Of a stretch of DNA of 64,000 nt, positions 17,299 to 23,525 are shown one piece after another. This stretch comes from Ensifer adhaerens. Its GTDB lineage: Bacteria; Pseudomonadota; Alphaproteobacteria; Rhizobiales; Rhizobiaceae. The translations under genes and the position numbers were made by a program. Positions within the stretch are counted from its first letter, which is position 1. Every line of letters begins with the position of its first letter. The notes beneath the pieces were generated by a model. It saw only the letters and a program-made list of their open reading frames with translations. It was not told where the DNA came from and did not search any database. The stretch lies in the NCBI RefSeq assembly GCF_000697965.2, contig NZ_CP015880.1:4007186-4071185 (forward strand). The letters run 5' to 3'.

Positions 17299-17344
17299 GC
17301 CATCCGAATTCCAAGTGAAGATCGGAAACGATCCAGATTCTCAT
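17299..17344 (-). pseudogene. Calcineurin-like metallophosphoesterase, 15-codon N-terminal stub
   Basis: On the minus strand an ATG at 17344, preceded by GGAATAGGTGA, opens MRIWIVSDLHLEFGW and then runs into the end of IS21 element 2, stopping after a few IS codons. DLH in a SDLHLEFG context is the first metal-binding box (DxH) of calcineurin-like phosphoesterases, which often start exactly this way. It lies 111 bp downstream of the unknown cargo gene on the same strand, so it was probably the last gene of that operon. Confidence 0.72.
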
Positions 17345-17455
17345 TCACCTATTCCTTGTCGTGCCTACCCATCGCAGCAGATGGGAGGAACCACGCTTTC
17401 GGACTCGCGTGCGGTCGATCCCAATTCCGTCCGCGTGTTCCAATTGACGCAGGTC

Positions 17456-17598
17456 CTATTTGGAGAGAAACGGATGGTTGGGCAGGTATCGGACCGCAAA
17501 CGCCCGCCTCATTTCCATGGCTAGCGGGTCGTAAAGTAGTTGGAGCGACCGTTTAAATTCCGTTGGAGAAAGCCATCCGTCCTGTAGACGCCATCGAC
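17456..17598 (-). pseudogene. Displaced C-terminus of the unknown cargo protein
   Basis: If IS21 element 3 and one ATCGAC copy are removed, the minus-strand frame ending at 20240 continues here for about 46 codons (after ...LFCRR: WRLQDGWLSP, then KRSLQLLYDPLAMEMRRAF, ending PNHPFLSK) and stops at TAG 17458-17456. The segment has no stops and normal protein composition, which supports it as the native C-terminus. Confidence 0.82.
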
Positions 17599-17781
17599 TG
17601 CGCGGCGGCAATCAAGGTGAGATTCAGCGTCAATCAGGATGAGACTCGGCGGCGGGGGTGTGACGAAGGGAGGGCGTAGCCCGACCGGAGTTACACTCCC
17701 GCCGCGGCGCAATTTTTAGGCGTCTCATGATCGCGGTCGGCCCGCTACGGTGGCGGTTTTCTGGAATGGAGAACCACCTTT

Positions 17782-20239: not shown

Positions 20240-21143
20240 ATCGACGGCAAAAGAGCGTATCCAGGTCATATCGATGGTGGTTTTCCAGCAGGACCCGGAT
20301 TTCTCCTTTGGTTCTGGGGTTCGATCGATGTTGCACCTCGAGTGCAAATCGGGCGGAGACTTCGTCGTCGGTTACCAACGAGATCGTCTCGATCTCGGCG
20401 GCGATATCCGCGGGAATGCTCTCCACTGCCGAACTACACGCACTGATAAACCGTACGTCTTCCGTAAAATCGATGGCCCATTCGGGCGGATCGTCACGCC
20501 AGAAAACCGTTTCCGCGGCCTCGGTCCACCGCCCGTCGATGACCAGACCCAGACTTCGAAAAGCATCGAACGCTTCTGGTGCCAGGTACGCCGGACCGCA
20601 GCCGTGCGAGGCACGGATGTTTGGCCGAAAGCGCCCCCGGGGATTAGGCTGCCCTCGAGAACCGGCAAAATGACGGTAACCGAGAAGATTGCTCTGGCCA
20701 GCGACCCATACGACTGTGGTAGCGACGTCATCCCACCGTGGCAGGACTTCAGGTATTTCCGGTTCAGCGATCGGTATTGCTCCGCCAAAGATCGTCCTTG
20801 CCTCTCCGAGTGCCGCCAACGCTTCGCAACCAACCTCGTACGCTGTGATAAAGAGGTGGTCCCACGCGACGGAAGGATCGCCGGGCAGATTGTCCGCAAG
20901 AAACTCGATGACCGGCGCAGTCCACGTAGGGGCGCTCGGTCGCTCGAGGCGACCTCCGGACGTCTCGAGCTGCGGTACGGTGGTCGATCGCCGCTTCTCA
21001 TCGCCACGCTTAGGTCCACCGACCGAGATGCGGCGTCCAAGGGGTGTGAACCCAGCGTTGTCGAGCACCTCTCCCAATGAGCCGGGCGATGCCGTTCTCG
21101 ACGTGGCGTTCCGATCTTTGCGAGGTCGCTTTGCTTTTGTCAT
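20240..21143 (-). pseudogene. Unknown cargo protein (about 350 aa when restored), N-terminal 301 codons
   Basis: Starts ATG 21143 overlapping the protease stop (GTGATGA), so it is translationally coupled to the protease. I do not recognise the family. The first 75 residues are basic and probably disordered (KAKRPRKDRNATSRTA), the rest is a compact acidic domain with many Trp (WTAPVIEFLADNLP, WDHLFITAYEVGCEAL, RWDDVATTVVWVAGQSNLL) and no membrane segment. Translation now ends two codons after the IS border (RRL). The native end lies at 17598-17456. It is probably a partner or substrate-delivery factor of the protease, judged only from coupling. Confidence 0.75.
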
Positions 21144-23068
21144 CACGTCGCCGCACCCTTGGCTAAACTCACTGTTGGTCGCCGGTGTCTGTCCAGGATT
21201 TCGAAGACTTCATCGCCAGACATCACGTTAGCCTCCATCAACCGTTTGATGATGGCATCCAGGGCAATCCGTCGGGTTCGAACAGCGGACTTCGCGCGCT
21301 CGAACTCGCTTTGCAGCACCGCGTGAACGTGTCTCCGAAATTCGGGATTGTATGTGCGCAATCGCTCGAGCTGAACCTGGTCCTCGACGACGAGGGTATG
21401 CCCCATGCCGAGACCGCCCTCGAGCATTGTCGCTAGCTCAGTCGCCCTGTTCAGGTCGGCGGTGTCCGAGCCCGAAGCGCCGTCGGCAAATGATCCCAAG
21501 ACCTCCAGTTCGGCCGCTATTCCGCCAAGGCACACGGCGATCGCGTTACGATAGTCGGCACTTGTCATTGGCCGAGCGCCGGTTTGACCGTACTGGACGT
21601 AGCCCAGTCCACTGGGTTTCCCGTCGATCCTGTAGCGCGAAATCCTGACCTCGCTCACGCGCCCGTATCCGATTTCGAATGCCACGATAGCGTGACCTGC
21701 CTCGTGAACGGCAAGCGCGCGCAGAAACTCCTCCGGCAGCTCCGTTACCGTCGGCAATTGCTCGACGATGTGGTCCCCTGAAAGGACTTCCCGACGCCGC
21801 CGCGCCACCCGCTTGGCATCCCGGACGAGTTGTTCGATGTCGGCACCCGACAGACCATCTGTCGCCATGCCGAACTTCTCGGCCTGGGACTGATCCAGAT
21901 CGGGGCCGCTGTGGAATGCCAGGATCGATAGCCGTGCCTTCGCATCAGGAAACGCAATTTCGAGCTGCCGGTCCAGTCGCCCTGGCCGCCGGATCGCAAG
22001 ATCGAGTTGGTCGGGATAATTGCAGGCTCCGATCACAACGACGCCCTCGCGACGATCGAAACCATCCAGAAGCTGCAGGAACCCCGCCATCGCGGCTCGT
22101 AAATAGCCGCGGTTTCGATCTGTCTCTGTCCGATCGCCGAACGTATCGACCTCGTCTACGAACAATATAGACGGCGCTTTCTCCTTCGCCTCGGCAAAGG
22201 AAGCCCGCATGGCTTTCAAGTGACTGTCGAGCGCGCCTGCTTCCTGCCATTCAGAAACCGAACCGTAAATGATCGGGACCTGGCAGGAATTGGCGGGCGC
22301 GCTTACAAACATCGTCTTTCCGACACCTGGAGGTCCGGAAAGTAAGACCCCATTGTCTACATCGCTCCACGGGAGAACCCCCGCCTTGTAGTCGGCGAGG
22401 TCTTTCGCAAGATTGGTTCCCCATCCGAGGGCAGGTCCGTATCCGTGCATATCGGCAAGTGTCGGTCCCAACGGTTTTGCGACCTCGTGCGCGGGTTTCG
22501 CCGGGACGCGCGAATGAGTTCGCAATCTCTCCAGGGCAAGCATGGGATGACGGCGATCCTGAAAAGCCTTGACCAATCGCGGCCAGGGCTCCGACAGAAG
22601 TAGGTCGACGTCCCGGTCAGATAGCGGCAAACCGGCACGTCGAAGCGCGGCTTCTGCATGTCGCCTCGTCCGCGGCTCCAAGTCCAGGACTGCGTCGGAA
22701 AACAGTCCCTCGTCGTCGTCGAGATTGTAGTCCGGCGGGGCGATGAAGATCGCTCTTTTGTTTTTATGAGCTTCCATCTCATCGCGAAATGACCGGCCCT
22801 TCCACTCATAGGCGTAGGATGTGAACTCCCGGAACGTCCAGATGCCGGCGGCGAAAACCTCCACCGCTTCCGCATAGACCGGGTAGTAGAAATCATCCTT
22901 GGCTCGAAGGGTCACAATGAATTTCGAATGCGATATGTTCCAAGCCCGGAGTGACGCCGCGACCCCGCAGTACGCCATGAAAACAGGCAACGTGACAGTC
23001 GTATTGCGGACCTGCGTATCCGTCTTCCAAGGCACACGTGTGCGTTTGCCGGAATGTGTTGTCGGCAT
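21143..23068 (-). CDS. Soluble FtsH-like AAA+ zinc metalloprotease (M41 type), island cargo
   Basis: 641 aa. An N-terminal domain of about 200 residues with no membrane helix replaces the FtsH anchor. The AAA+ module has Walker A SGPPGVGKT (about 245-252), Walker B ILFVDEVD (about 302-309) and the second region of homology (CNYPDQLDLAIRRPGRLDRQ). The M41 peptidase has the zinc motif HEAGH (about 455-459) and a candidate third ligand in SDTADLNRATELA. All key residues are present, so the enzyme may be active in the cytoplasm. ATG 23068 is chosen over 23089 because AGGAAAGAG precedes it. It is followed by a coupled unknown gene and a phosphoesterase stub. Substrate unknown. Confidence 0.88.
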   Translation of the reverse strand: MPTTHSGKRTRVPWKTDTQVRNTTVTLPVFMAYCGVAASLRAWNISHSKFIVTLRAKDDFYYPVYAEAVEVFAAGIWTFREFTSYAYEWKGRSFRDEMEAHKNKRAIFIAPPDYNLDDDEGLFSDAVLDLEPRTRRHAEAALRRAGLPLSDRDVDLLLSEPWPRLVKAFQDRRHPMLALERLRTHSRVPAKPAHEVAKPLGPTLADMHGYGPALGWGTNLAKDLADYKAGVLPWSDVDNGVLLSGPPGVGKTMFVSAPANSCQVPIIYGSVSEWQEAGALDSHLKAMRASFAEAKEKAPSILFVDEVDTFGDRTETDRNRGYLRAAMAGFLQLLDGFDRREGVVVIGACNYPDQLDLAIRRPGRLDRQLEIAFPDAKARLSILAFHSGPDLDQSQAEKFGMATDGLSGADIEQLVRDAKRVARRRREVLSGDHIVEQLPTVTELPEEFLRALAVHEAGHAIVAFEIGYGRVSEVRISRYRIDGKPSGLGYVQYGQTGARPMTSADYRNAIAVCLGGIAAELEVLGSFADGASGSDTADLNRATELATMLEGGLGMGHTLVVEDQVQLERLRTYNPEFRRHVHAVLQSEFERAKSAVRTRRIALDAIIKRLMEANVMSGDEVFEILDRHRRPTVSLAKGAAT

Positions 23069-23180
23069 TGCTCTTTCCTCGAAATTCAAGATTCCAAATG
23101 GCTCAGTTTATTCAGTCAGTCGCAGCTCTGGCTAAGAGACGCTCACTTTACGGGTCCCCCCGTCAAGAATATCCAGGCCC

Positions 23181-23525
23181 TCATTGGCGGCCCCCATACC
23201 TTTGGTTCCAGGGGTCTGGGTCAAGCCGGTTACCCAGCTGATACCAACGCGAGAGCGTCCGCGCGATGCCTCGTTCTTCGTCCAGGTAGTATAATTCGCT
23301 CGAAAATAGAGGGTGGCCATCCTCGATGGTCGGATGACCCTTAGCGCGGCCGATGAGGCAGGGCACGGCTCGCTTGGCAAGCGCCCAATCGTAGATGACG
23401 ACAGAAGAAGCACCGATATCGTCACGTTTGGCGGTCAGATCAAGGTCGTCTGCAAGATCACGGAGTCTGCGCACCACCTCCGTCCGCGGCATCCCGAACA
23501 AATATAAAAAGACCGAATCGCTCAT
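23181..23525 (-). CDS. DUF6634-like small protein
   Basis: 114 aa from ATG 23525, with GGGGA 8 bp upstream; an upstream in-frame extension to 23666 reaches into the AT-rich promoter region and is unlikely to be coding. The C-terminal half (WALAKRAVPCLIGRAKGHP, SSELYYLDEERGIARTLSRWYQLG) resembles a small family common in rhizobia, which I believe is DUF6634, function unknown. It is 112 bp upstream of the protease gene on the same strand and may be the first gene of the cargo operon. Confidence 0.65.
   Translation of the reverse strand: MSDSVFLYLFGMPRTEVVRRLRDLADDLDLTAKRDDIGASSVVIYDWALAKRAVPCLIGRAKGHPTIEDGHPLFSSELYYLDEERGIARTLSRWYQLGNRLDPDPWNQRYGGRQ

What the first reader, a model, noticed from the sequence alone, without database searches (positions are those of the whole stretch)
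17299..23525. Candidate undescribed cargo system: soluble AAA+/M41 protease, unknown coupled protein, calcineurin-like phosphoesterase
After virtual removal of an IS, the minus strand reads: DUF6634-like protein, FtsH-like protease without membrane anchor, a translationally coupled protein of about 350 aa with no recognised family, then a phosphoesterase start (SDLHLEFG). A cytoplasmic M41 protease with an unknown partner and a phosphoesterase on a mobile island suggests a stress, regulation or defence module. The function is inference only.
Basis: partly seen in the sequence, partly recalled or inferred. Interest (0 to 1): 0.85.

Follow-up and report, generated by a model that had tools for sequence, protein, structure and literature searches.

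The report
Broken protease module with shared tag
This is a transposon-broken copy of a recurring bacterial gene set, for which I found no published description, built around a soluble FtsH-like protease; its unknown partner protein carries near its front end a short motif that also exists as a free small-protein family.

Summary
On the minus strand: a DUF6634-like gene, an anchorless AAA+/M41 protease, a coupled gene of unknown family cut by an IS21-like element after about 302 of 347 codons, and 15 codons of a calcineurin-like phosphoesterase; no other part of it was found in this genome. All lies in a 17.5-kb island splitting comM. The set recurs: HTH / DUF6634-like / protease / unknown / phosphoesterase is open in L004, L005, L044 and L045; in L046 the phosphoesterase is in two frames, in L006 the protease is decayed. 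In 297 family genomes, 20 of 80 protease places have this phosphoesterase within 5 kb. New here: the unknown's N-terminus carries SLGxxLDxxGFxPLGRRIxV, which also forms a small-protein family (85 clusters); of 13 strong places, 9 lie by the protease, 8 by the phosphoesterase. Of 16 viewed loci with the unknown, the 6 tagged all have protease and phosphoesterase; of the 10 tagless, one has an FtsH-type neighbour and none the phosphoesterase. I propose that the motif is a docking or degradation tag, most likely read by the protease (inferred). Defence is plausible but untested. This copy is broken.

The parts
23659..24207 (+). Divergent double helix-turn-helix protein, 182 aa
   Evidence: Weak HTH Pfam matches, none over a cut-off; homologue divergent in L004, L005, L006, L044
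23181..23525 (-). DUF6634-like protein (ORF open to 23666; the start at 23525 is chosen by comparison with relatives)
   Evidence: PF20339 24.6 bits, cut-off 27
21143..23068 (-). Soluble AAA+/M41 zinc protease, 641-648 aa (ORF from 23089)
   Evidence: Pfam AAA and M41; FtsH and p97 folds over residues 201-640; motifs and no membrane anchor
20238..21146 (-). Unknown protein, residues 1-302, then cut by an IS
   Evidence: Relatives in L004-L006 are 347 aa at 87, 78 and 72 percent identity
21018..21080 (-). Tag: SLGEVLDNAGFTPLGRRISVG, residues 23-43 of the unknown
   Evidence: Tag profile E 2.8e-14 in L001, the same stretch; same motif as the free small proteins; 1, 3 and 5 residue differences from L004, L005, L006
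17459..17599 (-). C-terminal rest of the unknown, beyond the IS
   Evidence: 79 percent identity to residues 301-347, no stop
17605..20237 (+). IS21-like element that cuts the unknown (istA 17782-19296, istB 19293-20189); ends approximate
   Evidence: IstB_IS21 1.9e-64; Mu-transpos_C_2 8.3e-7
17300..17344 (-). First 15 codons of the calcineurin-like phosphoesterase; no more of it found in the genome
   Evidence: Sequence; tblastn residues 1-15 at 93 percent; no match in this genome
14850..17299 (+). Second IS21-like element, abutting the phosphoesterase remnant (istA 14850-16442, istB 16396-17226); ends approximate
   Evidence: IstB_IS21 2.5e-76
6922..7166 (+). 5' piece of comM (end approximate)
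   Evidence: ChlI domain positions 1-61
24673..25976 (+). 3' piece of comM (start approximate); the island is about 7166-24672
   Evidence: ChlI 78-120 and Mg_chelatase; frame read

Best explanation
The locus is an IS-broken copy of a mobile module: regulator, DUF6634-like protein, soluble AAA+/M41 protease, tag-bearing partner, phosphoesterase. Shown: gene order, recurrence, catalytic motifs, absence of an anchor, and that the partner's N-terminal tag matches a free small-protein family found often beside the protease and the phosphoesterase. Inferred: the protease works as a cytosolic ATP-driven ring; the tag is the docking or degradation signal by which the module, most likely the protease, recognises its partner. 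Where the globular unknown domain bears the tag it is a client or adaptor; where the tag is free it is a small regulator. The phosphoesterase is the hydrolytic output. The likeliest role is defence against mobile elements.
For: Same order in L004, L005, L044, L045, and damaged in L046 and L006. Within 5 kb in 297 genomes: protease with phosphoesterase 20 of 80, with DUF6634 14 of 80; uniform expectation 0.14 and 0.12. Tag places at E<=1e-3: 9 of 13 by the protease, 8 of 13 by the phosphoesterase. Tagged unknowns share a longest-contig length with a protease cluster in 27 of 88, tagless in 1 of 32, Fisher p 0.0011. Of 16 viewed loci with the unknown, 6 of 6 tagged have protease and phosphoesterase; of 10 tagless, 1 has an M41 gene (FtsH-type) and none the phosphoesterase. 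Plasmids: the 4 records with a close protease (E<=1e-100) are the 4 whose unknown aligns through the tag, side by side; the other 18 records with an unknown are not among the protease records. The tag follows the protease stop in the window, L025, L071, L072, L074. Phosphoesterase motif or profile in 9 of 10 viewed plasmid protease loci. Defence-type neighbours by annotation in 4 of the 8 annotated among these: CBASS cyclase and HORMA (L111), S8 peptidase with ATPase and KwaB-like (L113), DNA methyltransferase (L114), TIR (L116).
Against: No interaction or cleavage was tested. The tag also sits by the phosphoesterase with the protease 30 kb away (L108), and with neither nearby (L109, L073). 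In L006 the protease is decayed while unknown and phosphoesterase are open. 71 of 80 protease places have no tag detected at E<=1e-3 within 5 kb. One tagless unknown lies beside an FtsH-type gene (L064), so the domain may be linked to such proteases without the tag. The N-terminal 60 codons show little third-position bias. The flank comparison rests mainly on 3 methyltransferases against 1.
Confidence: 0.4

Rival explanations
1. Toxin-antitoxin-like circuit: the basic tag protein restrains the phosphoesterase, and the protease destroys the tag protein on a trigger so that the phosphoesterase acts.
For: Tag next to the phosphoesterase with the protease 30 kb away in L108, and in a frame that overlaps the phosphoesterase end in L118; listed free tag proteins have a median of 60 aa and a median pI of 11.1, lengths being limited by the search; HTH gene beside the operon.
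Against: 74 of 82 phosphoesterase places have no tag at E<=1e-3 within 5 kb; in L066, L067 and L076 the tag is about 1.7-4 kb away; nothing shows toxicity.
Confidence: 0.22
2. The tag is a nucleic-acid-binding peptide that brings the partner, and perhaps the phosphoesterase, to DNA or RNA; the protease only controls their level.
For: Strongly basic leader and motif; calcineurin-like enzymes include nucleases (recalled).
Against: The most conserved positions (S, L, G, L, D, G, F, P, L, G, R) are mostly not basic; the solved-structure search gave only weak hits, best E 0.027 over 10 residues, so it does not decide.
Confidence: 0.15
3. No functional coupling: the genes are frequent passengers of the same islands.
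For: The window copy is in an island and others are on plasmids; the uniform expectation ignores island clustering.
Against: Same order with short overlaps at 44-60 percent identity on different replicons; fused and free forms of the tag.
Confidence: 0.1
4. The module serves host stress regulation or protein quality control, not defence.
For: FtsH relatives usually do this (recalled); 4 of 8 annotated plasmid loci viewed show no clear defence-type neighbour by name.
Against: Patchy distribution (60 of 297 genomes), mobile sites, defence-type neighbours in the other four.
Confidence: 0.2

Closest known systems
FtsH (membrane AAA+/M41 protease)
   Different: No transmembrane segment; its own N-terminal domain; FtsH family model 169.4 bits against a cut-off of 600; the genome has a separate genuine FtsH (L023)
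IetAS (AAA ATPase plus S8 protease, anti-phage)
   Same: ATPase plus protease; the AAA domain matches the IetA model at 79 bits
   Different: The protease is M41 and fused to the ATPase, and 79 bits is far below the cut-off of 510. In L113 an S8 peptidase beside an ATP-binding protein (IetAS-like in my reading of the annotation) is a separate gene pair
Pup-proteasome and other small-protein tags (recalled)
   Same: A small basic protein encoded near an AAA+ protease
   Different: Conserved motif is not at the C-terminus; no ligase was looked for; a resemblance only
PADLOC candidate PDC-S10
   Same: The intact phosphoesterase of L005 matches over residues 1-111 (8.7e-18)
   Different: Only half of the 223-position profile is matched; I did not see how the candidate is defined (no paper found)

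Membership tests
FtsH | AAA domain fused to M41 peptidase with HExxH | tested here: met
FtsH | N-terminal transmembrane anchor | tested here: not met
   Peak hydropathy 1.29 in residues 1-240 against 2.41 in the genome's FtsH
FtsH | Score over the TIGR01241 cut-off | tested here: not met
   169.4 bits against 600
IetAS | IetA ATPase above its NCBIfam cut-off | tested here: not met
   79 bits against 510
IetAS | Separate subtilisin-like (S8) protease partner | tested here: not met
   No S8 family among the eight window proteins scanned; relatives were not scanned for it
DUF6634 (PF20339) | Score over the Pfam gathering cut-off | tested here: not met
   Window 24.6 bits, L044 23.9, L005 28.9 against 27: borderline
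Calcineurin-like phosphoesterase (PF00149) | Score over the cut-off and the metal-site motifs | tested here: met
   Intact relative in L005: 66.7 bits; motif pattern in the intact homologues of L026 and L044; the window holds 15 codons only
Known anti-phage systems (PADLOC 2.0.0) | Model match of the unknown, DUF6634-like or HTH gene | tested here: not met
   None for unknown and DUF6634-like at E<=0.1; HTH gene 19.1 bits at best
Anti-phage defence, any | Protection against phage | not testable with these tools
   Needs an experiment
Known fold for the unknown domain | Similar solved structure | tested here: inconclusive

The most novel reading that the evidence does not exclude
A portable protein-tag system: a free small-protein family and its fused copies mark client or effector proteins for a soluble FtsH-like protease that travels with a phosphoesterase on mobile DNA, a bacterial tag-directed proteolysis module used in defence.
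Probability: 0.25. Interest if true: 0.87.

Novelty: new variant of a known kind. Interest (0 to 1): 0.62.

Why it matters
It gives testable hypotheses for two unannotated protein families (the 347-aa domain, 157 homologues; the tag family, 85 clusters) and for DUF6634, and places a soluble M41 protease in a mobile gene set. A tag that occurs both free and fused can be tested directly with reporter fusions; if the protease reads it, targeted proteolysis by an FtsH-type enzyme would join the known strategies of mobile modules.

Tried and rejected
Structure searches of the unknown domain: no PDB or viral match at E<=0.001; this does not show a new fold. The protease model finds FtsH and p97 for residues 201-640; its N-terminal domain (about 30-191, alpha/beta) was hardly tested; one row (7t0v, Rix7) spans 25-446 at rmsd 11.3, a lead only.

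Rejected: that the three named genes are the unit (loci with DUF6634, protease and phosphoesterase but no globular unknown: L025, which has only a short tagged ORF, L027 and L069); that the unknown is a toxin held in check by the protease (L006 keeps it open with a decayed protease); membership in IetAS or FtsH proper. The window's recombinase-like ORFs did not match those of L006 at E<=1. Searches of phage genomes found no unknown at 1e-5 and no protease at 1e-40.

Literature: (DUF6634) and searches found no paper; one search listed 5 and one, none describing this module by title and abstract; one search held 863 papers, of which I saw 12; one search was unspecific because 'comm' matches common words (12 of 925 seen). 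For one search I saw 8 of 23 listings. Of PMC11291478 I saw one passage, in its reference list. All other papers were seen only as listings. Absence from print is therefore claimed for these searches only.

Caveats on counts: one search uses equal longest-contig lengths as a proxy for linkage, and related sequences; a few 'tagless' rows are database starts that cut the tag off (P0017, P0034). ignores island clustering; one second piece of a gene was dropped from 81 protease rows, and phosphoesterase rows weaker than 1e-18 were left out. The tag family's size range (40-100 aa) is set by the search's length limits; one of the 85 rows has E 0.06. The flank comparison used crude ORF calls: 83 of 90 test flanks (7 that looked like module genes were dropped, proteins over 1000 aa were left out, among them the PDC-S37-like protein of L034) against 77 control ORFs; 183 models matched against 53, but these overlap heavily and reflect mostly 3 methyltransferases against 1.
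Full report
What is in the window. The window lies on contig C1 of a 7.27-Mb, three-contig genome. Reading the minus strand from 24 kb downwards there are: a divergent double-HTH gene (23659-24207, plus strand), a DUF6634-like gene, an AAA+/M41 protease gene, an unknown gene whose GTG start overlaps the protease stop by 4 nt, an IS21-like element that cuts this gene, its remaining 45 or so codons, a gap, and the first 15 codons of a calcineurin-like phosphoesterase that end at a second IS21-like element. A whole-genome search lists no match for that phosphoesterase, so I take the rest as lost. 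The set lies in an island of about 17.5 kb that splits comM.

The parts. The protease keeps Walker A, DEVD and HEAGH and lacks a transmembrane segment, unlike the same genome's FtsH. Its model (mean pLDDT 81.3, pTM 0.51) matches FtsH and p97 over residues 201-640 and has a separate N-terminal alpha/beta domain. A search with residues 1-240 of the L005 protein found 116 proteins; all but four (P0130, P0139, P0231, P0233) carry both AAA and M41. The unknown has no Pfam, NCBIfam or PADLOC match and 157 homologues (120 listed). Its model (mean pLDDT 84.7) is mostly confident from residue 68 on; the first 67 residues are poorly predicted, with a short helix at 24-30 inside the tag. No solved or viral structure matched convincingly.

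Recurrence. The one genome-contig scan found three relatives, L004-L006; plasmid records gave L044-L046. The order HTH / DUF6634-like / protease / unknown / phosphoesterase is present and open in L004, L005, L044 and L045. In L046 the phosphoesterase is matched in two overlapping frames, and in L006 the protease has lost its AAA part. In 297 genomes of the family, 60 have the protease N-domain, 61 DUF6634, 67 the phosphoesterase and 8 the unknown or its tag. Within 5 kb: protease with phosphoesterase 20 of 80, protease with DUF6634 14 of 80, phosphoesterase with DUF6634 21 of 82; uniform expectations are below 0.2. A further variant has HTH / DUF6634 / an AAA protein of 510-580 aa / AAA and M41 parts / phosphoesterase (L050-L052, L058). 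The window's own genome has a second such protease (41 percent identity), 2 nt before a phosphoesterase of another subfamily (L022). Ten plasmid loci of more distant proteases were viewed, out of 26 places in 22 records; nine have a phosphoesterase motif or profile within 5 kb.

The tag. The family search with the unknown gave, in three genomes without the globular domain, matches to its first 50 or so residues only. These are small ORFs of 57 codons or so near protease and phosphoesterase genes in L038 and L039, and a protein of about 124 aa that starts 1 nt after the protease gene in L025. A profile of these and of the unknowns' N-termini (A3) found 85 small protein clusters in the public databases (the search admits only 0.55 to 1.75 times the query length, hence 40-100 aa). 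In the 67 of 85 that a simple pattern anchors, the core is SLGSALDEIGFKPLGRR[IV]K[IV]K; the 70 unknown tags so anchored read SLGEALDEIGFQPLGRRI.V at the same positions. Differences between the L038 and L039 ORFs fall mainly on third codon positions (3, 3, 14). In 297 genomes the tag has 13 places at E<=1e-3: 9 have the protease within 5 kb, 8 the phosphoesterase, 5 DUF6634. A tenth, G498, has a protease that the N-domain search missed (L074). G000:C3 has DUF6634 only, G509:C14 DUF6634 and phosphoesterase, and G295 none of these (L073). Eight weaker places (up to 0.01): 3 by DUF6634, of which 2 also by the phosphoesterase; 5 by none of the searched genes. One of the three, G491, also has a protease in its locus L072.

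Tag and linkage. By profile 88 of 120 listed unknowns carry the tag; 27 of these share a longest-contig length with a protease cluster, against 1 of 32 without it. Among the 16 viewed loci that hold the globular domain, 6 carry the tag and all 6 have protease (one decayed) and phosphoesterase; of the 10 without the tag none has the phosphoesterase, and one, L064, lies beside an FtsH-type gene with a hydrophobic N-terminus (peak 1.71). In plasmids 22 records hold an unknown; in 4 the alignment reaches through the tag, and these are exactly the 4 records with a close protease, side by side. The other 18 are absent from the protease lists. Homologues in other families and orders of Alphaproteobacteria begin at the globular domain (L017-L020, L049). 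So the globular domain exists independently, and in the loci seen here it carries the tag where it lives with the soluble protease. This is the central new finding.

Results against the reading. Free tag proteins also occur next to the phosphoesterase with the protease 30 kb away (S. meliloti AK76, L108 and L117), and with neither nearby (L109, L073). Most protease places (71 of 80) have no tag at E<=1e-3. L006 keeps the partner and phosphoesterase open although the protease is decayed. Over the first 60 codons of the unknown, differences are not concentrated on third positions; within the tag itself there are 1, 3 and 5 residue changes against L004, L005, L006. The partner of the tag may thus be the phosphoesterase or DUF6634. 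The proposal that the protease reads it rests on adjacency and on the tag following the protease stop (window, L004-L006, L025, L044-L046, L071, L072, L074).

Function. Of eight annotated plasmid protease loci viewed, four have defence-type neighbours by name: CBASS cyclase with HORMA protein (L111), S8 peptidase with ATPase and a KwaB-like protein (L113), a DNA methyltransferase (L114), a TIR protein (L116); L110, L112, L115 and L119 do not clearly. L005 has type I restriction-modification-like genes downstream (my reading of the translations). The L005 phosphoesterase matches half of a PADLOC candidate profile. The flank comparison is only suggestive. Defence is plausible, not shown.

Verdict. 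A real, recurrent module for which I found no published description, present here as a broken copy, with a tag shared by a free small-protein family and an unknown partner domain. The mechanism is inferred.

Noticed in passing
window 6922-7166 and 24673-25976: comM is split by an island of about 17.5 kb that carries several IS elements (an IS3-like one at 8568-9781, three IS21-like ones) and unassigned ORFs that look recombinase-like to me (9696-11279, 13918-14853; no Pfam match).
   Followed up: partly
L022:8208-10645: Second soluble AAA+/M41 protease of the same genome, 2 nt before a 179-aa phosphoesterase of another subfamily, and again next to an IS21-like element.
   Followed up: partly
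L070:5291-6503: On contig C3 of the same genome two DUF6634-like ORFs are followed by a tag ORF, with no protease or phosphoesterase match in the central 9 kb listed; a large ATPase and two further genes lie beside them.
   Followed up: no
L064:2034-5469: A tagless homologue of the unknown lies about 620 nt downstream of an FtsH-type gene with a hydrophobic N-terminus.
   Followed up: partly
L050-L052, L058: A wider variant with an additional AAA protein of 510-580 aa between DUF6634 and the M41 part; in L058 its AAA part matches the Lon model below the cut-off.
   Followed up: partly
L004:5724-6062: A second, partial phosphoesterase match lies between the DUF6634-like gene and the protease, as if the gene had changed place.
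   Followed up: no
P0093, P0080: Some homologues of the unknown carry a DUF2442 domain, between tag and globular domain in P0093, at the N-terminus in P0080.
   Followed up: no
P0233: A McrC-annotated protein of Sinorhizobium fredii starts with about 90 residues of this protease's N-domain; perhaps a fusion by deletion.
   Followed up: no
L115:7764-8468: In a Bosea plasmid DUF6634 lies beside an MbcA/ParS-type antitoxin gene, with TnsA-like and Mu-transposase genes further on.
   Followed up: no
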